Source: Henricia sp. BOLD:AAB3569 (taxonomy: Eukaryota; Echinodermata; Asteroidea; Spinulosida; Echinasteridae). From it: a stretch of DNA of 64,000 bases. The stretch spans positions 62,001 to 126,000 of the forward strand of contig JBBELK010000372.1 of the NCBI GenBank assembly GCA_037783545.1, in the 5' to 3' direction. The notes beneath the pieces were generated by a model, which saw only the letters and a list, made by a program, of their open reading frames with translations, ran no database searches and was not told the origin of the DNA. Both the position numbers and the translations under genes were made by a program. Shown here piece after piece: positions 21,579 to 63,976 of the stretch. Each line of letters opens with the position of its first letter. Position 1 is the first letter of the stretch.

Positions 21579-21811
21579 CAGTTGAAGTCAGAAGTATAAA
21601 TGCATGTACACCACTACCATCATCACCCAAAATGGTAAACAGGACTACCCGAACCATTGCAAGGTGTACAAGCTATGTTTTAAGTAGTGCATGCACGTGA
21701 GGAATTCCACAAAATCAAGAATTTAATAAAGATTGTTACAAAAATGGTGTAAGCACACCAGTTTTAACACTTGGTTGCATACAGTTGTATTTATACTTCT
21801 GACTTAAACTG
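21579..21811. mobile_element. Family H MITE with Tc1/Sleeping Beauty-like ends, copy 1
   Basis: The left end CAGTTGAAGTCAGAAGTATA and its complement on the right, next to TA, closely resemble known Tc1-type termini (CAGTTGAAGTC...AAGT). The 230-bp interior has no transposase. Related copies lie at 55271-55471 and 58617-58650. Confidence 0.8.
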
Positions 21812-21934
21812 TATGTCCAATCAACCATGTGCACTTTAGCTCACACATGACATAGAAAATGGAAAAGCACCGGTTTGTTTCCTGCCACCACAATTTCCTT
21901 TGAATGTTTACATTTTCTGAAAATCCGCTACACA

Positions 21935-22869
21935 GCCTTGTCCAAGGGCTGTAAAATTATGTGAATCCGTGAAGAATTGGCCTGTATGCTATACAGCGAA
22001 AGTGCGCCACCGCGCGGTGAATTGTAGCCGAATGCAAAATAGTCTGGTTACCGAAATATCTTGTTCTGAATCCTGACTTCACGCGCGAGGCTGAATCACA
22101 GCCTTGTTCTTTCTGTACTCGATGTGTTTTATGGGCGGGGACTCTTTATGCTAATTTTTCATAGAGAGCACCGAGACGTAAAAGCTCATTGGTTAACGGT
22201 TGTTTTGACAGAACAACACGGTGCTGTTTGAAAAATAGCAGATTTTCCGTACGTATACCCAGTTGGTAAGTTAACAAATACGTCATAGGGCCTACCTTTT
22301 ATACAGAAAATATGTGAGGGCTATCTTCTGGTTTTCGTGAAAGTCATCAATTTGCAATTTGTCGGCTACAGCATAATTCAAACTAACGTTGATTTCCTCA
22401 GTTGTAACACTACGTGATGATGCCGCCATGTTGCATCAGAGACATGAGATAATGGTTTCCCGATAATCACGTACTACATGTACATGTACATGTAGGCCTA
22501 AATGTACTTAGCCTACAAACGTTTTAAGTATGCTTGCAAACCGGTCACATGACCCGAGGGTCAAAATAGTGATCTCTGATTGGATATTCTGTAAGATATG
22601 AATATTTATAAGCACTCGGGTTTCGCATAAGTAATTGCGTCTGATTTCCAACGTAGTTATAAAGAAACACATAACAAATCGAGTACAGAAAGAACAAGGC
22701 TGTGATTCAGCCTCGCACGTGAAGTCAGGATTCAGACAAAGATATTTCGGTAACCAGACCATTTTGCCGTTGGCTACAATTCACCGCGCGGTGGCGCACT
22801 TTCGCTGTATATAGCATACAGGCCAATTCTTCACGGATTCACATAATTTCACAGCCCTTGGACAAGGCT
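21935..22869. mobile_element. Family W: long foldback with ~200-bp arms
   Basis: Arms 21935-22132 and 22669-22869 are inverted copies with only scattered differences, starting GCCTTGTCCAAGGGCTGT and containing CACCGCGCGGTG and TCTGGTTACCGAAATATC. The 536-bp centre is unassigned. Compatible with a foldback DNA element. Confidence 0.75.
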
Positions 22870-23290: not shown

Positions 23291-23298
23291 GGGGTTAA

Positions 23299-23772
23299 AG
23301 GCAGTATACATGATTGGTATCTCGAAAATCAGAAATGTTCACAGATTTACGCCTAACTTACACAATATAAACATGATGACCATAGAAAACTTCCTCGGAA
23401 ATGGTTTTGTCTGAAGTATAGTCTTTGAGAAATGAGTAAAACAATTAGTTTTCGCCCAAGTGCCATTTCGCCCCCAAACCACTTCTCCCGAGTGCCATTT
23501 CGCCCCAAATTACTTCGTTTAAACACTACATCGCCCAAATGCCACTTCACCCCAAAACCACTTCGTGCACAGGCCGTGGTTCAGAGCGAAATGGTTCAGG
23601 GCGAAGTGGTTTGGGGGCGAAATTACTGCAAACCTTTTTTGGACTGTTTTCTCAAAAGGTTAGACAAAGGACGGAGCTGGTTTTTGCTCAGGTTGGTTTC
23701 AATCATGCATATCTTCAATTACACAGGGGGATAAAACTATTTGTAACAGTTTACCAATCATGTATACTATCT
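23299..23772 (-). mobile_element. TTAA-flanked MITE, family B, copy 1
   Basis: Ends AGGCAGTATACATGATTGG and AGATAGTATACATGATTGG (inverted), with TTAA directly outside both (23295-23298, 23773-23776). The core is an array of GGGGCGAARTGG / CCAYTTCGCCCC units. TTAA duplications are the hallmark of piggyBac-type transposition. No transposase inside. Confidence 0.85.
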
Positions 23773-23904
23773 TTAAGCTCCCTGCAAGAGCTACGTGGTT
23801 ATCTTCTCGCCCCGTATAATGTACCGAGTTGTTGAATTTGAAGAGGACTAATTAACAAGTACATGTAGAATCCAAGTAATGCGGTGATGAATGGCGCGCT
23901 GAAA

Positions 23905-24062
23905 AGTTGACGTTGCGGTACTTTCCTCGTCTTCCATCTCTGTGGCTCTGGTTCGAATCCAATCCAAGCCATTATGTGAATTGCGATTTCAATCACTGCT
24001 TGATTCAGTGGGTTTCCCCACTAGATGTGTGTAGGGGGTTTCCTTCCACTGAGCATTTTTTT
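23905..24062 (+). mobile_element. tRNA-derived SINE, family T2-like, copy e
   Basis: B box GGTTCGAATCC at 23951-23961 on the plus strand, followed by GTGGGTTTCCCCACTAG and GGGTTTCCTTCCACTGAGC, as in other T2 bodies. Confidence 0.6.
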
Positions 24063-24557
24063 TCATAATTATCGAGTCTTCAAAGTTTTCTTTAGGCTTA
24101 TGAGCTACAGTGCTATGGTCACTTTTTGAGGAATCCTTGGTTTCAGTACCAGGAGAAATTACATGTAATAATTAAAAATTAAAAAGTGGTAAATAATAAC
24201 TGTGCCGGAGATCATTGGACAAAAACTGCGTGCTTCACGAATTCAACTTGTTTTACATTTAACAAAGCATCGCAAATAACAACAGCATCAAATTATTGGC
24301 TGATTGTATTTCCGTAAAAATGGCCGAACAAATCTTAAAATGTGGATGGAAAAATAGACAAATTTAGTGACTTGGTAAATGGGATTTCACTAATTTACGA
24401 TGTAAATTAAGGACCTACCATACGATTAGCATGATTGTATCTATAATTAGCAATCGAAACAATCACAATACCGAAGTAGGGCAGCGAACCAGTCTATACC
24501 ACATTATTGCGGGTCCAATGACGAAAGAGGGCGCTATTTCAATTTGCGGACACTTAA

Positions 24558-25020
24558 TATTGGTATTAAAACTGTTACAAATAGTTGTATCCTCATGTGT
24601 GATTGAAGATTATGCATGATTAAAACCAACCTGAGCAAAAACCAGCTCCGTAGTTCCTCTAACGTTTGAGAAAACAGTCAAAAAAGTTTGCAGTCATTTC
24701 GCCCCAAAACCACTTCGCCCTTAACCATTTCGCCCTAAACCATGGCCTGTGCACGAAGTAGTTTTGGGGCGAAGTGGCATTTGGGCGATGTAGTGTTTGG
24801 ACGAAGTGATTTGGGGCGAAATGGCACTCGGGCGAAATGGTTTTGGGGCGAATTGAATTTTCGTCTCATGAGACGAAACTAATTGTTTTACTCATTTCTC
24901 AAAGACTATAGCACTTTTCGACGGAAGTTTTCTACGGTCATCATGTATATAGTGTGTATAAGTTAGGCGTAAATCTGTGAACATTTCTGATTTTCGAGAT
25001 ACCAATCATGTACACCGCCT
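24558..25020 (+). mobile_element. TTAA-flanked MITE, family B, copy 2
   Basis: The right end is intact next to TTAA at 25021-25024. The left terminus is eroded, with TTAA at 24554-24557. It contains the CGTCTCATGAGACG hairpin and the GGGGCGAAGTGG array. Opposite orientation to copy 1. Confidence 0.8.
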
Positions 25021-25082
25021 TTAAAGGTCATTATATCATTTGTAGATGAAACTTTTTTTTATGAATTCCTGGAGTTAAAACA

Positions 25083-25183
25083 TTTACATGCCTCAAAACG
25101 AATATTGGTAAACAAGCCTTTAGAAATCTCAGTTACATTGCACTCATGGTGCTTCAGAAAACTTTGAAATTCCATGCGTGATT
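25083..25183 (+). repeat. Family BB, copy 3 (partial)
   Basis: TTGGTAAACAAGCC, AGAAATCTCAG and GCTTCAGAAAACTT match the 5' part of BB. It stops at family C copy 1. Confidence 0.55.
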
Positions 25184-25192
25184 TCTGCTTAA

Positions 25193-25761
25193 AGGGCTTA
25201 TTTAGGATTTTTATCAATGAAATCTATGCTTTAAAACCACTCTACTCAGTTAAAGTCATAAAATCCTATTTGGAGCTTGCTTTGGGGGTTAAAACAAAGG
25301 TTTTTAGTTTTTATGCTAATGAAAATATGCATATTCATGACCAAGGTCACGATGTCACAAGAGGCAAACACAGGAAATTCACATTCAACTGTGCACAAAA
25401 GATTCCACTTTTTTCTCAATTTTCCTGAAACTTTTGTAATCCATGGCTGTTTGAGTTTGTTTTACATGTTGCCTGCTGTAAGCCATGACAAAACTGGGGG
25501 TAGAAACTGCAGCAATTTGCCACAAGTCCAACTTGAAGTCTTATGTTTTTTCTTAACTTTTCCCTTCTGTCTTCCTTATGTGATGCACTCAAAACAGCGC
25601 CCTCTGTCTGTGATTTATTGCAATGAAATCTTCAAAGTTGAAAAAGGCCACCTTTTATTGATTTTACATCCAAACGAACAATAGTATGTCTTGCTGAACA
25701 AGTAATCCGTCATTATGAAGCAAAGCTTAGGCACAAAGTTGTTTAGCATGTCACAGGCCCT
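25193..25761 (+). mobile_element. TTAA-flanked MITE, family C, copy 1
   Basis: Flanked by TTAA at 25189-25192 and 25762-25765. About 570 bp aligning end to end with 40790-41361 (ACTGTGCACAAAAG, TTTTACATGTTGCCTG, AACAGCGCCCTCT). The left terminus has diverged from the right. The 135-codon frame inside is a by-product. Confidence 0.8.
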
Positions 25762-26120
25762 TTAAAGGAGCGTGCCCAAACCGGTTTGGATGGATGTTGG
25801 TCGTCCGTTTCCAACGATGCCGCACAAATTCCGCACAAATTCAGCACAGAAAAATCTACGTGGTGGTTTGCTTGGCCTCCAGGTGGCGTTGCTTGGCAAC
25901 AACACATTGACATCGGGTCAAGTGAAAGCGCCCTCTGTAGACTCTGAACACAGTCTCAGGTAATCTCAACAGATCTAAATGTACTCATGGATGAATTGGT
26001 TGCAAAATCACACAATGGAAGTCCGTCTTTACGAAGAGCAAGTTCGTGCAACGAGTAATAAAATAAACTGGAAAATTCAATGAGTTGTTACAGGTCATTT
26101 AACTCCACATAATATATTAA

Positions 26121-26580
26121 AGATATATATATGATTGGTAAACTGTTACAAATAGTTTTATCCCCCTGTGTGATTGAAGATATGCATGATTAAAACCAAC
26201 CTGAGCAAAAACTGCTCCTCTAACTTTTGAGAAAACAGTCAAAAAAGGGTTTGCAGTCATTTCGCCCCAAAAACCACTTCGCCCTGAACCATTTCGCCCT
26301 GAACCACGGCCTGTGCACAGAGTGGTTTTGGGGCGAATTGGCATTTGGGCGAAGTGGTTTGGGGGCGAAATGGCAATTGGGCGAAATGGTTTTGGGGCGA
26401 ATTGAATTTTCGTCTCATGAGACGAAAACTAATTGTTTTACTCATTTCTCAAGACTATAGCACTTTAGACAAAACCATTTCAGGGGAAGGTTTCTACGGT
26501 CATCATGTTTATACTGTGTAAGTTCGGCGCAAATCTGTAAACATTTCTGATTTTCGAGATACCAATCATGTATACTGCCT
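26121..26580 (+). mobile_element. TTAA-flanked MITE, family B, copy 3
   Basis: TTAA on both sides (26117-26120, 26581-26584), with the same GGGGCGAAGTGG core and CTCATGAGACG hairpin as copy 2, in direct orientation with it. Confidence 0.85.
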
Positions 26581-26679
26581 TTAAACATTACAATCACCTG
26601 CTGCACCTGAAACATTCCTGTGGATTCTACACGTGGCTCTCTTGTTCTCTTCATCCTGGATGACAAACCATAATGCAGC

Positions 26680-40204: not shown

Positions 40205-40280
40205 TCACTCACCCCACCCCCACCCCCACCCCCACCCCCACCCCCACCCCCACCCAACCTAACCTAACCTAACCCAACCC
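40205..40280. repeat. CACCCC tandem tract joined to AACCT repeats
   Basis: About seven CACCCC units are followed at 40254-40275 by AACCT repeated three to four times and CCCAACCC. The minus strand is G-rich with strong G-quadruplex potential. The AACCT part resembles a TTAGG-type telomere word but is too short to call telomeric. Confidence 0.75.
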
Positions 40281-52550: not shown

Positions 52551-53380
52551 CAGGATGTCCTATAAGGTGTCCCAGAAAAAAGGAAACCGAGATCATATTG
52601 CCAAATACTCGGTAATGACTGAGAATTAAAAAACAAAACGGCAACTACTATACGTTTGATTACCGTGTCCTCTTTCTTATGACGCCAAGAAATCCAGAAT
52701 AGCTTCATATATAGATGACCGAGCATGGTTCAAAGCGAGCCTGTCAGAAATACCTTTGTACAAAACTACTTCCGATACTATGCTCGTTTGGAACCATTGG
52801 TCCTTGGTCATCTATGACTTCAAGTTATACTCCGAATGTTTTTCATCACTATTACAGTCTGTGTCGGCGCGTGTTGTCGGCGCGTGTTGTCGGCGCGTGT
52901 TGTCGGCGCGTGTCGTGTGTCGCAAGCGCAGCGTGTCGTGGGCGACAAAGAGCGTGCCAAAAGTATACGACACAACTGACGTCATAACGACACACGTTCT
53001 TGTCATCTGCCATCAAAATGGATGTAATAGATGTGATAACGCTCGTAGCTGCCTTTGTCGGTGGCGTGGATGTGTCGCAATTCGTGTCGCATATGCTGAC
53101 CAATATCACGATAAGAGTCATGGACGCCCACGACTCATTCCGACACACGGGTGCGTCATACGATTTTGAAAACAGGTTCGAAAGTGTCGGAAACCCCACG
53201 ACACACACACGACACCGACACTGTCGTATTTGTGTCGTGGGGTGCGTCGGAATCTTAAACCCACTGCCCCGAAACATCCCTGCTTCCCGACACAACTGGG
53301 GTCATTTGTGTCGGGAAGCGTGTCGGGCTTGAGGGGTTCAGCCCCTTTATCTTGGTTTCCTTTTGTCTAGGACACTCTGT
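52551..53380. mobile_element. Family Q: large element saturated with GTGTCG/CGACAC
   Basis: Ends share GTGTCC..AGA..AAAAGGAAACC in inverted orientation. The right half is packed with GTGTCG words, including a 13-bp tandem GTGTTGTCGGCGC (52861-52913) and hairpins CCCCACGACACA..TGTGTCGTGGGG (53193-53245) and TTCCCGACACAA..TTGTGTCGGGAA. Frames here are by-products. Confidence 0.65.
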
Positions 53381-55270: not shown

Positions 55271-55471
55271 ATACCATCATCACCCAAAATGGTAAACAGG
55301 ACTACCCGAACCATTGATGCAAGGTGTACAAGCTATGTTTTAAGTACTGCATGCACGTAAGGAATTCCACAAAATCAAGACTTTGGTTAAGACTGTTACA
55401 AAAATGGTGTAAGCACACCAGTTTTAACACTTGGTTGCATACAGTTGTATTTATACTTCTGACTTCAACTG
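55271..55471. mobile_element. Family H MITE, copy 2 (left end lost)
   Basis: Nearly identical to 21630-21811 and ends ACTTCTGACTTCAACTG next to TA; the left terminus is missing. Confidence 0.75.
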
Positions 55472-55545
55472 TACCTGAAAGTGAAAGTCTTCAAACTATT
55501 AAAGGTACAAATTTTAATTTACATGTTACATGTAATATCAACCAA

Positions 55546-55639
55546 ACTTGGGATGAGACAAAAAATCGTAAGGGCCTTATCGGAATTTGAACCCGAGACC
55601 TCTCACTCACCGGGCTCTATCAGCTGAGCTATAAGGCAC
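55546..55639 (-). mobile_element. tRNA-derived SINE, family T1, copy b
   Basis: Minus strand carries GCCTTATAGCTCAGCTGATA (tRNA head) and the TCTCATCCCAAG tail. It forms an inverted pair with copy c about 100 bp away. Confidence 0.65.
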
Positions 55640-55740
55640 TGTGGTATACTTCGTCGGGTTTTCTACGTCAGAACCAAATTTTCTCTCTGTATTGCATGGG
55701 TGCGTATCTATACGCAAAGAAACCAACGCAATATCTGGCA

Positions 55741-55839
55741 TGTGCCTTATAGCTCAGCCAGTAGAGCAGCTGCCCGGCGAGTCTAGGGTCTTGGGTCCGA
55801 ATCCCGATAAGGCCCTTACAATATTTCTCTCATCCCAAT
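55741..55839 (+). mobile_element. tRNA-derived SINE, family T1, copy c
   Basis: The acceptor stem GCCTTAT (55744-55750) pairs with ATAAGGC (55807-55813), and the D and T stems also pair. TAGCTCAGCCAG and GGTCCGAATCC serve as A and B boxes. The anticodon stem is mismatched. The non-tRNA tail ends CTCATCCCAA. Confidence 0.7.
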
Positions 55840-56229
55840 ATTTCTCTGATCATACCAGATATTGCGTTGGTTATGTAATATCAAGAAAACAATAGATATT
55901 GGATACGGTATTTTGCCCCGTTACCGGTTACCTTGAGAGAAAAAAAATGTGTTTCGTGGAAAGGTTTCGAGCACACCCTTGCTTTATCCCGTGCGTTCGG
56001 GCCTCTGGCGATGAAGGTAAACGAAATTCAGTCTTACGGTTAACCGTTCAACAAGATGCTTTCAATCTCGCTGTCGTACGTGTGCGTCGATAATTAACGT
56101 TGTGCCGGCCTGTTTGTCAGGTGAGGTCTACAAGTTCATCAAACTCTATCAATAAAATGGATAAAAGGTGACGAAATTACGAGCTGTGAACGCGCCTGCG
56201 CTGGATCCGTCACGCAGTCATTTGTCAGT

Positions 56230-56345
56230 CAAGTAGGTACGGTCTCTGAGAATTCCTCTTTATTTATCACTGACGTCACTTGTCAGGAAATATTGCCCGA
56301 AGATGGTATTGCGCAACGAGAGTGAGATAGAGAGAGAGAGCGAGT
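56230..56345 (+). promoter_or_regulatory. Candidate promoter of the GPCR gene
   Basis: A perfect palindromic cAMP-response octamer TGACGTCA lies at 56271-56278, about 175 bp before the ATG. It is preceded by a TTTATTTA stretch (56260-56267) and followed by a GA-rich tract (56323-56342). These are known classes of promoter element. Their use here is inferred from position only, and no transcription start can be placed from sequence. Confidence 0.4.
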
Positions 56346-56452
56346 CGTGTTTCATTTGATGTCGTTTGCGGAAGTGTTCTTAAAGTGTGTTGCGCATTAA
56401 CGGTCGCTATCTTTCAATAACGGGACATTTTAGCTTGTTAAGGTGATTGAGG

Positions 56453-57529
56453 ATGGACGTATACGGGATGGATAATTCTACAACTACCGCAGGTGGGGAT
56501 AACTATTCTACAACTATCATGGGGGAACAAGCGACCACCAGCCCGTACCATGTCACCGCTGTCTCGCTGATCAAGGCTAGTCTCTTAGGTCTTACGGCCA
56601 TTCTCGTTCTTTTCGGCAACACCATGTGCCTCATCGTCCTCCGATTGACACACGACGGGGTCAGCCCCGTCACCAAGCTCTTCCTGGTTTCTCTGACCAT
56701 CAGCGATATCTTGGTCGGTGTGCTTGTCTGTGTGCCTGTGATCGGCTCAACCGCCCTGCAGAGCTGGCCGTACGGTGATGCCTACTGCACCGTAGTGGCT
56801 ATGTGCCACACGCTGTACTTTAACGCCAGTCTGTCCGTGTTGGCCATCAATATTGAGCGCTACATAGCAGTGATTTGGCCGCTGAGATACCCATCCATTG
56901 TCACCATAAGGAAAGCGGTTATCGCCGAGATCTTTGTGTTTGCAATGTTACTGGCGTGGACTCTGATGTACGTTCTCGGACGCAATAGGACGGCGTTTTA
57001 CTACAACAACTTTAGTGTGTGTTTCATCGATTCAAATAATGGCTCTGATTTCATGGGCCAGCTTGGAATTACGGTCTTCCTCGCCGTTCCGATGCTAATC
57101 ACGGTCATTCTTCACATTCGGCTGTTTCTACTGGCAACTCGCCATGCAGCTAAGATATCCTCCATAGTTATTGGAGACATAAACCCACCAAGAGCGACGA
57201 ACACCGAGTGCCTGCAGATCGCAGAGCCACAGGCTCATCGGCATTCCAGCACTGGAACGGTTCGTCCGGGACGCGTTCGCGCGCGTTCGTCCCCAGAGAC
57301 GAAAGCTGCAAGAACGTTCTTCATTATGGCGGCCGTTGCAGCCATTTCGTGGACGCCATATTACATCACCATCTCGTGGGAGAACGTTCGGGCCGAGCCC
57401 GTGCCGGAGGCCTGGGCCTTTGTTTCACAGATACTCCTGCTTCTCAACAGTCTATGGAATGTTATCATCTACTACACGAGGAACAACGCGTTCAGGAAAA
57501 CGGCAAACAGAGTCCTGGGTTGTTGTTAA
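56453..57529 (+). CDS. Intronless class A (rhodopsin-like) orphan GPCR, complete
   Basis: Predicted plasma-membrane seven-helix receptor of 358 residues that should couple an extracellular ligand to G proteins. The ATG at 56453 has a good initiation context (A at -3, G at +4). An in-frame TTG at 56447 is not a credible eukaryotic start, and another ATG follows at 56468. Approximate helices: TM1 38-63 (GN, N56), TM2 75-100 (D85), TM3 111-137 (C112; ERY 135-137), TM4 154-175 (W169), TM5 202-228 (P213), TM6 284-308 (SWTP 299-302), TM7 320-341 (NVIIY 336-340). C190 in loop 2 can pair with C112. N-glycosylation sequons are at N8, N17, N178, N186 and N196. The third inner loop (~229-283) is basic, and the chain ends in Cys-Cys, a possible palmitoylation site. 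The aminergic TM3 Asp is absent (C118/H119 there). TM6 has SWTP instead of CWxP, and TM7 has NVIIY instead of NPxxY. The ligand is unknown. It may belong to the lineage-expanded sensory-type GPCRs known from echinoderms; that is inference. Confidence 0.93.
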   Translation: MDVYGMDNSTTTAGGDNYSTTIMGEQATTSPYHVTAVSLIKASLLGLTAILVLFGNTMCLIVLRLTHDGVSPVTKLFLVSLTISDILVGVLVCVPVIGSTALQSWPYGDAYCTVVAMCHTLYFNASLSVLAINIERYIAVIWPLRYPSIVTIRKAVIAEIFVFAMLLAWTLMYVLGRNRTAFYYNNFSVCFIDSNNGSDFMGQLGITVFLAVPMLITVILHIRLFLLATRHAAKISSIVIGDINPPRATNTECLQIAEPQAHRHSSTGTVRPGRVRARSSPETKAARTFFIMAAVAAISWTPYYITISWENVRAEPVPEAWAFVSQILLLLNSLWNVIIYYTRNNAFRKTANRVLGCC

Positions 57530-58616
57530 CGAGTTTATCCGTGGCGGGGCTAAGAGTTTTCCTTATGAGATTCAAACACTGAACAGTGCTGCAGTTTTCT
57601 CAAGCCACCATATAGACAACATCAGCTTAGCCGCAATGGACACGCAGTGATAGTCGCAGTTCATTCAAACAGCCTGGCGCTTGACTAAGATGACCCTTTA
57701 ATGGACACGCATGGCCTTTGTTATGCACAGCACGTTAACATGGCACCTTACTAACGGACGATATTTGGCCAGCATGAACGCAAAGGCGTTCGGTAATTTT
57801 GTTCGTATACATGTATTAAAATTACACAGGCAGTGAAATGTTCAAGTTATACCACACGTCATGTTTAGTATGCAGTGTGAGTCCTGTTAAAGTGCGTTTC
57901 TGTGGCCTGTTTACATCTCATAAACATGCTTCTAATTTCCACTAGGCAACATATTTGAAAGAATGCATTCACACCTATTTCTGTTAAATATGCGGTAGAA
58001 TTGATAGCAAGGCAGGTTAAACGCATTTTAAAAAGTGAAACAACGTATTTACGTGTGCGTCAACGTGTGCCGGGTGCTTTTCAGGTTGTTTATAAATGAA
58101 TGCGAGGTTAGAGGTTGCACAAACATTCGTGACATCATCACTGATATACGCAAGCACCCCCACCCCCCTCCTCCCTCCCTCCCTCCCTATCTAAACCTCT
58201 CAACAATCTGGTTGCAATGACAAAGGCAGCGATTTTTCAATCAAACAATTAAAGCCATAAACCTAAGTGTTACGGATCAACATAGTCAAAATATTTTACC
58301 CAATCAAGGGACATGCAATATCAACTCGACGCAGATCTGCTTTTGTGAACAGTCGAACTATAAAGTTCACGACTTTGCTGTCGTTAAGTAAGATGTATTT
58401 GTAAACAGTACAAAGTGTGTGATTCAAATTGATATTTTTTTCATTTTTGCTGTACTGTAAATTATTATATTACGTTTGAGTGCAATTTATTATATTTATA
58501 AACAATTTTACTCTAAGTCCGAATCCTTGTGTTTGGCAAAAATTGGCAGGGCATACATGTATAGGTGTATACATATATATGGGATGCGAGTTTAGGTGGT
58601 AACTTTATTCTATAGT
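57530..58616 (+). other. Region downstream of the GPCR, possible 3' UTR
   Basis: No gene or repeat is recognised. An ATTAAA hexamer at 57815-57820, about 290 bp after the stop codon, could serve as a polyadenylation signal; no AATAAA was seen nearer. A C/T-rich tract of CCCT/CTCC units lies at 58151-58190. Confidence 0.3.
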
Positions 58617-58650
58617 GGTGTACATGTATTTATACTTCTGACTTCAACTG
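58617..58650 (+). mobile_element. Family H right-end fragment
   Basis: TTTATACTTCTGACTTCAACTG next to TA, identical to the right end of 55271-55471; cut by family I. Confidence 0.65.
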
Positions 58651-58652
58651 TA

Positions 58653-58759
58653 CACTCTCAGAAATAATGGTTCAAATCTGCACCCTCACGGGTGCTTATC
58701 TTTGATACAATAGCAGCACCCCTCAGGCGCGGATCCAGAGGGGGGGTTTTAGGGGTCAC

Positions 58760-58791
<32 letters not shown>

Positions 58792-59109
58792 TGCTCCGAC
58801 ACCAAAAAATAGAATGTAATGCATTTTTTGCGTGTCCGCCTGTCCGAAACAAGCAGACATAAAAATCTGATGGGCAAAACCCCTCCCTGGTGGCAAAACC
58901 CCCTCCTGGAAAAATTCCTGGATCCGCCCCTGCCCCATGTGCATTATGTGAACATGATTTGCACATTGAAAGGAGCGAGTCTGCACTTTAGGGGTGCACA
59001 TATGTTCAAATGGTGCAAATTTGCTCCCATAGGGGTGCACATTTCCTCCTATAGGGGTGCTGCTATTGTATCAAGATAAGCGCCCCAATTGCACCCTAAT
59101 TTCTTAGTG
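58653..59109. mobile_element. Family I MITE, split by family A
   Basis: Inverted ends CACTCTCAGAAATAATGG / CACTAAGAAATTAGGG, with GATACAATAGCAGCACCCCT on both sides of the insert and TGTA directly outside both ends. Family A (58724-58932) sits inside. Confidence 0.75.
58724..58932 (-). mobile_element. Family A (hAT-like) MITE, nested copy
   Basis: Reverse-orientation copy of 9118-9304 with ends CAGGCGCGGATCCAG / CAGGGGCGGATCCAG, enlarged by a poly-C run of over 30 bases (58760-58791). Confidence 0.8.
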
Positions 59110-59405
59110 TGTACATGTATTTTAAATTACGAGCTTATCTTTTGTCAAAGATCTGATAAAGGTCTTGTCGTTTACCTCTCGGAACCTTTAAGCATGTGCC
59201 ATTCCATACCTCGATAAAAAAAAAACTTGAAGCAAACAATTCCTTGAAAAAAAAAACGACAACCTAATTCCTTTATCGCCACTTAATTATTTTGATTTAT
59301 TTAAAAGATCTCAGAAAGACGTCGAGCTAGTTGTGACACCCACAACATTCACACTGACATGCTCAAGTGTTTATCTTTAATATGGATGCTTCAATTCAAA
59401 AACCT

Positions 59406-59731
59406 CGGGGGATTGTCGGGTCAGCGAACCCGTTCAGGGAACGTGTTTATGGATGAGTAACCAACGGGAAACATGTGGTTTTTGTAAATTTCATGGAGGG
59501 TTATTTTATGACGGTGCCGTACAAGGGATGTCACATATCGCAAGTTTGTAAATATTTTTTAATATTTTTAAATATTTTAAAAATATTTTTAAAATGCGAT
59601 ATGTGACATCCCTTGTACGGCACCGTCATAAAATAACCCTCCATGAAATTTACAAAAACCACATGTTTCCCGTTGGTTACTCATCCATAAACACGTTCCC
59701 TGAACGGGTTCGCTGACCCGACAATCCCCCG
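59406..59731. repeat. Perfect 137-bp inverted repeat with AT-rich loop
   Basis: 59406-59542 and 59595-59731 are exact reverse complements over all 137 bases, compared base by base. The 52-bp spacer is made of AAATATTTTT-type words and is itself partly self-complementary. The sequence just outside the right arm (ATATGTGACGTCACTGTACG) resembles the inner end of the arm (ATATGTGACATCCCTTGTAC). No coding content. Confidence 0.95.
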
Positions 59732-60624
59732 ATATGTGACGTCACTGTACGCCACCACAGTATAGCCTATAATTATTTGGAGGGAATTTGTTTTTACTAA
59801 AACTGGTGGGCCGACAATCGCTAGAAGTTTATTTTAAAATCCGTTTTTGTTGAACGTGACAGCACACATAATGGATCGGATTTTTATACGGTGGCTCCGA
59901 CCATCTTTCACTTATACAGTCAAACGGTAGGCCTGTCTCATAATAATAATTGGCATTTTTCGTATAAATAGCGTCTGATGCGCTGATGCACGTTCACATG
60001 TTAGTATCCAGATGGCCAGACTAAATTTGTGTTGCTATGTGGTGCACGCGGCAGGTATTTAGTACAGAATCAGTACCGTGTTGACTGTAGCAGATAATGG
60101 CCTAAAGCGACCATTCTGTCGGTTGCGTGGAATTGACAGGCACCACGTAGCAACAACAGCATAGTGTGTATAGACTTTCTGAACTGCACCTCCATTTGAG
60201 AGTAAAGAATTCGGGGCGCCAGACATAGTGCAAAGGTTACACGCAACTAAAATCTAATTTGGTAGCTTAGTCTATTGATGTTTACAAGATGGCGTGTATA
60301 ATTATAGACTCAATTCGGTATACGGTCGTGTTTTGCCGTCTAACGCCATTTTACCGCGCACGATCGATAGCCGTTTTTATGTGCAGTATATATTTTGGTT
60401 TCGACCTGTATACCGACTTGAGAAACTCCTTCACATTGTTGCCATAGCAAGAACTGATCACGGTAATACATGCACCGCACTCCACGGTGTGGTGTTTAAA
60501 TGAATATGCAATAAGAACATTTTTGCAATAGATACGTGTCTTTATTCAGATAAACTGCGTTTAACTTTCAGCGAAATATAGTAGGTCTTCTTTGAGTCAC
60601 TAGTACTTATACTGCGTACATTAA
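59732..60624. other. Intergenic, nothing assigned
   Basis: No feature recognised. Confidence 0.45.
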
Positions 60625-60946
60625 AGGAGCATGACCAGAGTTTCTGGAAAATAGTTTTTGATGTAACTTACCAATATTATCAAGTAACTCCCATACACAC
60701 CTCCCATGTCCCAAAAACCCGAAAACATTCGCGATTTCCAGTACAAAATTGAACAAAACTATCGAGTCGGCTTTCAGTGGATAAACGTTGATACTGGAAA
60801 ATTAGTTTACAAATAATCGGTGGATTTTCGACGATATCCTCGGAAATATGCGGCCTAGAAGCGCGGGAGTTTCAGTTTCGTTATGATATAACAATCTCAT
60901 AACCCGGGGAGTTATGGGTAAAAAAAAGTGATCTGGTCACACTCCT
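60625..60946. mobile_element. TTAA-flanked MITE, family L
   Basis: Inverted ends AGGAGCATGACCAGAG / AGGAGTGTGACCAGAT, with intact TTAA at 60621-60624 and 60947-60950. A 322-bp interior without coding potential. Confidence 0.85.
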
Positions 60947-62110
60947 TTAACCAAAACTTGGGCCAACGGAAAGGTCGAATTATTACTATGATTATGTCTC
61001 ATTTTGAAATTCAGGAGTAATGGATATTGATAGGTCCACTACTTGTGGAAATCTAATTCGCAAGCACATTCAGTTTTGAAAATGTGGCTGAATATTAATA
61101 AAGCTCCGTGTCTCGACCAATCGGATCTCTACGTCCAGTTCTGGTAGCAAACTTCATAGCCCGTGTACAAAGTGACAGACAGGTTTCTCAAGTCGGTAAC
61201 TGGAGGTGGTCTAGACTTGTCCCCAGTCCATTCGCGACTACGCTGCTGCGGTTTACGAACCAACCGGTCCAGTTACCGGCTTGACATCAAGTCTATGTAT
61301 AATAGGGACTTTCAAACAATATTAAACCGTCCTCATTGGAGAACGGTTTCGTTGAAGTCAACTTAATCACCTACGGTCCGAAATCAAAGGGCCGCAAAGG
61401 GATTCGACGCATCGTTTCCCTTAATAGAAAAAATCCCATTAACGTATTGGCAACAGTCTAGAGTATGTATACCCAAATGTCAAAATGACATTTAATTAAT
61501 TGTTCGAACGTATACGACGGCTCAATCAGGTGAATAATATTGGAAATTGTTCTCGTGTCCGCTGTAGACTGAATTTCCCTCAGCAATCAAACACGATTTC
61601 ACAATGTTTTAGATGGTTAAAAGTACATCTGTAAATGATGCCCGATATTGTGCAGTTTGGCATATGCAATGTTTGGTTTGTAAAGCGATGCGTCTGTTTG
61701 ATATTGTTTGATAATTATAATGAAAACGTGTATGGCTTCGTGGTGTTTGTCAAATATAATTTGTCTAATAGTGTATTCTGTGACATGCAAAATTACCGTG
61801 CATTCATGAATAGCAAAATGGGAGACATTATCAGCCATGGTTGTATTGGTTTTGTCTGTTCAAAGTCTCCTTTCAAAGTCAATCTTTTCATCACATAAAA
61901 TAATGTTACATCGAATGCGGGGTGTTTGTTTGGTTTTTAATTTAGGGCCATTTTTACTTATATTGTATCATTTTCACTGATATTGTATCATTTTCTTGGT
62001 ATCGTTGTGAAAATATGAATTCAGTTTCTACTTTGCACAAACCATGTACCCGGCTGTATAGAGAGAGGATTTCATATTAAAACTATATTCCATCATTTTG
62101 CAAGACGAAC
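60947..62110. other. Intergenic, nothing assigned
   Basis: A short doublet CTGATATTGTATCATTTTC lies near 61960-62000; otherwise nothing recognised. Confidence 0.4.
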
Positions 62111-63498: not shown

Positions 63499-63976
63499 AG
63501 GCAGAACACATGATTGGTAAACCGTTACAAATAGTTTTATCTCCCTGTGTGATTGAAGATATGCATGATTCAAACCAACCTGAGTAAAAGTCAGCTCTGT
63601 ACGTCGTCTACCTTTTTGAAGGAAAAAAAAAGTCAAAATTTGTTTTAGTCACTTCGCCTAAAAACCACTTCGCTCTGAACCACGGCCTGTGTACGAAGTG
63701 GTTTTGAGGCGAGGTGGCTTTTTAGGCGAGGTGGCTTTTTAGGCGAGGCCTGAGGTGGCGTTTGGGTGAAGTGGTTTTCGGGGCGAAGTGAACTTTCGTC
63801 TCATGAGACGAAAATTAATTGTTTTACTCATTTCTCAATATATAGCACTTCAGACAAAACCATTTCACGGGGAGGTTTTCTACCATCATCATGCCTGTTT
63901 ATATTGTGTAAGTTATATGTGTAAATCTGGGAATTCAACGTTTCTGATTTTCGAGATACCAATCATGAGTTCTGCT
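63499..63976 (+). mobile_element. TTAA-flanked MITE, family B, copy 4
   Basis: TTAA on the left (63495-63498) and TTGA on the right (63977-63980). The core GGCGAAGTGG array has an extra duplication of AGGCGAGGTGGCTTTTT. It reaches almost to the window end. Confidence 0.8.

What the first reader, a model, noticed from the sequence alone, without database searches (positions are those of the whole stretch)
59406..59731. Perfect 137-bp inverted repeat with a 52-bp AT-rich loop
Both arms are identical over every base, while all other palindromes in the window have diverged. This means very recent formation, gene conversion between arms, selection, or an assembly or sequencing artefact. If transcribed it would give an uninterrupted long double-stranded hairpin, a potential endogenous siRNA source. 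Sequence outside the right arm echoes the inner arm, which hints at a template-switch or fold-back replication origin.
Basis: partly seen in the sequence, partly recalled or inferred. Interest (0 to 1): 0.8.

Follow-up and report, generated by a model that had tools for sequence, protein, structure and literature searches.

The report
Fold-back copying made perfect palindrome
A long perfect DNA hairpin present on one of two assembled copies of an unnamed, apparently animal genome looks like the fresh scar of one copying error, in which the copying machinery folded back at a small old transposon and duplicated the neighbouring DNA in reverse; the mechanism is known, but this is an unusually clean before-and-after pair.

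Summary
The palindrome is real in the sequence: arms 59405-59542 and 59595-59732 are identical over 138/138 bases around a 52-base spacer. The next longest exact arm in the window is 54. It is not a young MITE: the arm was found only here and on one homologous contig, C353. C353 behaves as the other haplotype: collinear, 2.6% diverged, with the only near-identical copy found of a nearby receptor gene. C353 lacks the right arm; there the locus is left end, AT-rich middle, right end of a small terminal-inverted-repeat (TIR) element. Its ends match (25 of 29 each) a repeat family with 204 TIR matches and 6-bp target duplications. One template switch reproduces C372 exactly: 13-nt pairing of the TIRs, 122-138 nt copied, return at 3-nt microhomology, net gain 133 bp. 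Best reading: a recent, polymorphic template-switch or fold-back mutation primed by a transposon hairpin, probably without function. Known mechanism; clean, long instance. Not settled: replication versus break repair, and reads to exclude an artefact.

The parts
59405..59542 (+). left arm, the inferred template: about 109 bases of flank with no other genomic copy found, plus the left TIR
   Evidence: exact 138-base reverse-complement match to the right arm; in the genome found only on C372 and, in two pieces, on C353
59514..59542 (+). left TIR of a small old terminal-inverted-repeat element
   Evidence: 25 of 29 bases match the TIR of a repeat family; 25-mer at <=3 mismatches finds 7 places outside this locus, reversed control 0; family pattern has 98+106 matches, control 0
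59543..59594 (.). AT-rich spacer (the element's interior), hairpin loop
   Evidence: present in C353 too; AT-rich array of period 10
59595..59732 (-). right arm: inverted copy of the left arm, absent from the homologous contig C353
   Evidence: net insertion of 133 bp, copied stretch 122-138 nt
59595..59623 (-). third TIR copy, carried along inside the new arm
   Evidence: one search shows two opposed copies of the same TIR in C372 (L014)
59595..59607 (.). first switch region: TGCGATATGTGAC, 13 nt shared by the original right TIR and the inverse of the left TIR
   Evidence: last base before the switch lies at 59594-59607 in all 56 four-point solutions
59730..59732 (.). second switch (return) at CGA microhomology
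   Evidence: outermost copied base 59405-59408, return point ambiguous by 3 nt
59730..59755 (-). original right TIR of the element (the 'echo')
   Evidence: in C353 the complete right TIR matches the family at 25 of 29 alignment columns (one gap); at <=3 mismatches it finds only C353 and C372

Best explanation
A small old TIR element (MITE-like, about 110-130 bp) sat here with an imperfect hairpin: left TIR, AT-rich middle, right TIR. On the C372 lineage, DNA synthesis that had copied the right TIR paired its 3' end (13 nt, TGCGATATGTGAC) with the left TIR and copied outward for 122-138 nt, through the left TIR and about 105 bases of adjacent single-copy flank. It then returned to its own template at a 3-nt match (CGA) in the right TIR. 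One event turned an imperfect hairpin into a perfect 138-bp-arm palindrome; it is young and polymorphic, and probably has no function. Shown by sequence: the two states and an exact path between them. Inferred: which state came first in C353, that the event was replication-associated, its direction, and its neutrality.
For: Three TIR copies within C372 itself (left, inverted copy, original right) mean that the new arm was copied after the element had inserted. C353 has the predicted pre-event junction TTTTAAAATG|CGATATGTGACGTCA. A single four-point template switch reproduces C372 exactly from a model in which the insert is removed. C353 behaves as the other haplotype: 38,101 aligned sites at 2.6% substitution, and among the candidates scored the nearby receptor gene has two near-identical copies, C372 and C353 at 98%, with the next match at 36%. 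The C353 element folds as a DNA hairpin (-30.9 kcal/mol, z -8.65). Zero differences between the arms, against 3.6-5.1 expected if they were as old as the haplotype split (P(0) 0.006-0.028). Of 38 indel or unaligned segments of 25-1500 nt between the haplotypes, 2 had a nearby inverted match by my thresholds, and only this one (seen there as 59625-59729, 105 of 105 bases) was full-length and 100% identical.
Against: No outgroup polarises insertion against loss. Of 26 other sampled copies of the TIR family, 0 show their flank re-copied, so the element is not a frequent trigger. The right TIR at <=3 mismatches finds no family member outside this locus, so the element is a diverged copy and its family link rests on 25 of 29 positions at each end. 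The copied stretch (122-138 nt) is long for this class: median 12, maximum 128 in the great-ape gold-standard set (PMC7954356, passages). Break-repair fold-back predicts the same product. The target-site duplication of this particular element is not clear.
Confidence: 0.65

Rival explanations
1. The same fold-back copying, but during repair of a double-strand break in the right TIR: the resected 3' end snapped back on the left TIR, was extended, and was rejoined at CGA microhomology (snap-back synthesis-dependent end joining, or gap filling at a TIR element).
For: Foldback priming at breaks near inverted repeats is supported as a source of inverted duplications in yeast (PMC10622511, passages). 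Single-copy animal Pack-TIRs are mostly attributed to transposition-independent gap filling, with microhomology of 1-36 bp, median 2 (PMC8277862, passages). The 3-nt return microhomology fits.
Against: The path needs no untemplated base at either junction, and nothing in the sequence marks a break. It is indistinguishable from replication switching by sequence alone.
Confidence: 0.22
2. The palindrome is older than the haplotype split, and C353 lost the right arm by deletion between the 11-bp direct repeats CGATATGTGAC that flank it.
For: Palindromes are deletion-prone (recalled), and the direct repeats exist (59597-59607 and 59730-59740). C353 also has a 30-bp gap within the left arm.
Against: The C372 arms would need zero differences over the whole time since the split (P 0.006-0.028 without gene conversion), and the four C353/C372 substitutions in the arm would all have to lie on the C353 side. 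The direct repeats are themselves a by-product of the copying event.
Confidence: 0.06
3. Assembly or library artefact: a chimeric fold-back read built into contig C372.
For: Template switching during amplification can make artificial structural variants (PMC11226609, passage); reads of this genome are not available.
Against: The sequence returns exactly to the correct right flank with a 3-nt microhomology; both contigs are over 1 Mb long; a consensus is normally built from many reads (recalled, the assembly method is unknown to me).
Confidence: 0.05
4. A functional hairpin (siRNA or miRNA source) kept perfect by selection or arm-to-arm conversion.
For: It would form an uninterrupted 138-bp duplex if transcribed.
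Against: Absent from the other haplotype; no Rfam match at gathering score; no transcript evidence available; youth alone explains the identity.
Confidence: 0.02

Closest known systems
Template-switch mutation, four-point model (Loytynoja & Goldman 2017, recalled, not held; PMC7954356 passages; PMC8794818 part 1 of 6 plus passages)
   Same: reverse-complement copy of adjacent DNA placed between two switch points; creates a perfect hairpin in one step; quasi-palindrome start and microhomology return
   Different: the copied stretch, 122-138 nt, is near or beyond the 128-nt maximum of the great-ape gold-standard set; seen between two haplotypes; seeded by a transposon hairpin
Pack-TIR formed by gap filling (Tan et al. 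2021, PMC8277862, passages and outline)
   Same: non-element DNA copied from close by into a TIR element without transposition, with microhomology
   Different: the filler is the element's own left flank in inverted orientation, together with the TIR, giving a palindrome
Inverted-repeat homogenisation by template switching in yeast genes (PMC8604942, passages)
   Same: an imperfect inverted repeat turned perfect by switching between arms
   Different: the perfect arms in the passages I saw are 7-16 bp; here copying ran past the repeat into unique flank and left the old right arm outside
IS3EU/GingerRoot-type non-autonomous elements (PMC10045372, PMC12730594, passages)
   Same: 6-bp target duplications and TAT...ATA ends in the repeat family
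   Different: no transposase found or tested; the copy at this locus is diverged and its target duplication is unclear

Membership tests
Template-switch mutation (four-point) | derived sequence reproduced exactly by copying nearby DNA in reverse between two switch points | tested here: met
   56 equivalent solutions with a copied stretch of 60 nt or more, all one event; the pre-event sequence was modelled from C372 minus the insert
Template-switch mutation (four-point) | a sequence without the copy exists at the homologous site | tested here: met
   C353 has the predicted junction
Template-switch mutation (four-point) | derived state polarised by an outgroup | not testable with these tools
   no related genome is held for G000; dating by arm identity is indirect
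Pack-TIR | non-element sequence between the two TIRs of one element, parental copy elsewhere | tested here: met
   flank copy lies between left TIR and original right TIR; parent is the adjacent left flank
Pack-TIR | target-site duplication flanking the whole element | tested here: inconclusive
   no clear 6-bp duplication at this locus by eye
IS3EU/GingerRoot-type non-autonomous element (repeat family) | 6-bp target-site duplications | tested here: met
   11 sampled copies: 46 of 66 bases match vs 22.1 expected, 0 of 10,000 permutations reach it; 4 of 11 are 6/6, the others 1 to 5 of 6
IS3EU/GingerRoot-type non-autonomous element (repeat family) | TA...TA termini | tested here: met
   10 of 11 sampled copies have TAT...ATA at the ends as I placed them; the exception, L041, ends in TTG; the TA..TA rule is from PMC10045372
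IS3EU/GingerRoot-type non-autonomous element (repeat family) | related autonomous element with IS3-like transposase | not tested
   stop-to-stop frames of three held stretches with longer copies were listed but not searched against families
Young MITE made of the whole palindrome | many genomic copies with the same arms | tested here: not met
   full arm only at this locus, both strands; C353 homologue in two pieces; no other match at E <= 10

The most novel reading that the evidence does not exclude
Ageing MITE hairpins act as built-in primers for unusually long (>120 nt) template switches that extend into host flank, so that dispersed TIR elements seed new, perfect long hairpins of host sequence, raw material for hairpin-RNA or miRNA loci, which segregate as polymorphisms.
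Probability: 0.12. Interest if true: 0.6.

Novelty: new member of a known kind. Interest (0 to 1): 0.38.

Why it matters
How long perfect hairpins arise is an open question, because point mutation is unlikely to build them. Here what look like the before and after states survive in one assembly, both switch points can be read to within 3-13 bases, and the priming structure is identified as a transposon hairpin. It is a ready test case for whether TIR elements seed long template switches in animals, and whether such hairpins are transcribed before they decay. As a single neutral-looking mutation of a known type it is of modest importance.

Tried and rejected
Ordinary young MITE: rejected, the arm is not repeated. 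First impression that the window holds other long exact palindromes (242, 134): wrong. Those were seed spans, and my notebook entry repeats the error; one search corrects it. An earlier count gave the inversion as 3.8 kb; the inverted alignment spans about 3.3 kb. Hits of the spacer on C867 and C99: AT-rich spacer only; two stretches were fetched but not studied. Autonomous element: frames of three stretches with longer family copies listed, nothing recognised by eye, no family search made. There I kept 19 plus-strand blocks by diagonal (offset 473,500-477,000) and dropped off-diagonal repeats, blocks under 150 bases, the inverted segment and segments over 1500 bases. An 823-bp segment with a 197-bp inverted match nearby fell below my 50% threshold and is not among the 2 counted. 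Naming the organism: not attempted beyond noting a rhodopsin-type receptor gene. Literature: 10 searches. The whole-word combination mite, template switch, palindrome gave 0 papers, but whole-word matching misses 'MITEs' and 'template switching', and only this library was searched, so I make no claim that such cases are unpublished. PMC9962433 was seen only in a search listing.

Full report
OBSERVATION. The next longest exact inverted pair within 5 kb in the window is 54 bases. In 5 mononucleotide shuffles the longest was 14-20. As RNA the stretch folds to -286.2 kcal/mol (z -44.6).

WHERE IT LIES. The window is C372:62001-126000 of an unnamed 740.7-Mb assembly in 2104 contigs. The assembly appears to hold both haplotypes, at least here. 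Contig C353 is collinear with window 16297-64000 apart from gaps and one inversion, at 2.6% substitutions over 38,101 aligned sites (994 mismatches). A class-A receptor gene at 56447-57529 has two near-identical copies among the candidates scored, C372 and C353 (98%), while the next match is 36% identical. The left flank (10 candidates scored) and the right flank (40 of 3255 candidates scored) likewise have full-length matches only on C372 and C353 in those lists. C353 is therefore very probably the allele.

THE ALLELE WITHOUT THE ARM. In C353 the sequence runs left flank, left arm (4 substitutions over 108 aligned bases and a 30-base gap relative to C372), AT-rich middle, then directly TGCGATATGTGACGTCATTGTACGCCACC and the right flank. 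The right arm is missing. The arm as a DNA query finds only C372 (both strands) and C353 in two pieces, even at E up to 10, so the palindrome is not a dispersed element, as far as that search sees.

THE HIDDEN ELEMENT. The inner ends of the C353 structure are diverged terminal inverted repeats of a genome-wide family. A 27-base family TIR pattern with up to 3 mismatches has 98 forward and 106 reverse matches; the same pattern read backwards has 0. Searched from this locus, the left TIR (25 bases, up to 3 mismatches) finds 10 places, of which 3 are this locus and its allele and 7 are elsewhere, control 0; the right TIR (28 bases, up to 3 mismatches) finds only C353 and C372. Aligned to the family, each end matches at 25 of 29 positions, the right one with one gap. 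Complete family copies of 53-658 bp between facing TIRs were seen. In 11 sampled copies of 65-2106 bp the 6 bases on either side agree at 46 of 66 positions, against 22.1 expected; 0 of 10,000 permutations reach this, and 4 of 11 agree at all six. Six-base duplications and TA...TA ends are the published marks of IS3EU/GingerRoot elements (passages of PMC10045372 and PMC12730594); no transposase was tested, so this is a lead. I could not see a clear target duplication for the old copy at this locus.

HOW THE PALINDROME AROSE. C372 contains three TIR copies: the left one (59514-59542), an inverted copy within the new arm (59595-59623), and the original right one (59730-59755). The new arm therefore copied both the left TIR and about 105-109 bases of flank after the element was in place; this follows from C372 alone. 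A single four-point template switch on a pre-event model (C372 minus the insert) regenerates C372 letter for letter. The first switch falls within the 13-base TGCGATATGTGAC shared by the two TIRs in inverse. The copied stretch is 122-138 nt, ending at 59405-59408, with return at a 3-base match (CGA) and a net gain of 133 bp (56 equivalent placements). The C353 form folds as a hairpin (DNA, -30.9 kcal/mol, z -8.65), which gives a reason for the switch.

AGE AND DIRECTION. If both arms were as old as the split of the two haplotypes, 3.6 to 5.1 differences between them are expected, for divergences of 2.6%, about 3.4% (my sum over the three blocks around the locus) and 3.7% (the arm itself). None is seen, P = 0.028 to 0.006. 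This ignores gene conversion between arms, so loss of the arm in C353 is unlikely but not excluded. No outgroup was available.

HOW SPECIAL IT IS. Among 38 indel or unaligned segments of 25-1500 bases between the haplotypes, 2 had an inverted match of at least half their length at 85% or more within 1.5 kb. One is a 32-base segment at C353:530751 (90%); the other is this one (seen as 59625-59729), the only full-length, 100% case. An 823-bp segment with a 197-bp inverted match fell below the threshold. Among 26 distinct other copies of the TIR family, out of 30 fetched loci, 0 show their outer flank re-copied in inverse within 1.5 kb. Such events are thus not routine for this family.

COMPARISON. 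Template switching is a recognised way to create perfect hairpins in one step (PMC8794818, part 1 of 6 and passages). In great apes the copied length has median 12 and maximum 128 in the gold-standard set (PMC7954356, passages), so this event is near or beyond that range. Filling of TIR elements with nearby DNA at microhomologies without transposition is described in animals as Pack-TIRs (PMC8277862, passages and outline), and foldback priming at breaks near inverted repeats is described in yeast (PMC10622511, passages). The present case joins these: it is filled like a Pack-TIR, but with its own flank, inverted. Sequence cannot separate replication switching from break repair.

FUNCTION. None is shown. 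There is no Rfam match at gathering score in 58000-61500, no RNA data, and the other haplotype lacks the structure. I take it to be a neutral mutation, with the dsRNA idea untested.

Noticed in passing
window 55272-58614 vs C353:532083-535798: An inversion of about 3.3 kb between the two haplotypes carries an intact class-A receptor gene (56447-57529, Pfam 7tm_1 E 6.7e-34). The collinear alignment resumes at 59116, about 290 bp left of the palindrome.
   Followed up: partly
window 21640-22462: 823 bp present in C372 but not in C353. It holds the left arm (21934-22128) of a 94% inverted repeat whose right arm lies at 22673-22869; possibly an element insertion.
   Followed up: partly
window 59942-60265: Part of a very abundant repeat (3255 first-look candidates, 40 scored; the 38 scored matches outside C372/C353 are 77-84% identical) begins about 210 bp right of the palindrome.
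   Followed up: no
window 23295-26585: Three related arms (23295-23777, 24569-25027, 26131-26585), the first inverted relative to the other two; the palindromic 20-mer TTTCGTCTCATGAGACGAAA at 24859 and about 26408 recurs at 63794.
   Followed up: no
window 58761-58791; 52862-52913; 40212-40255: 31-base poly-C; perfect 13-bp x 4 tandem repeat; perfect (CCCCAC) x 7.3.
   Followed up: no
L057 (C515:1255122): A complete 65-bp copy of the TIR family is almost only two TIRs, with target duplication matching 5 of 6 bases.
   Followed up: no
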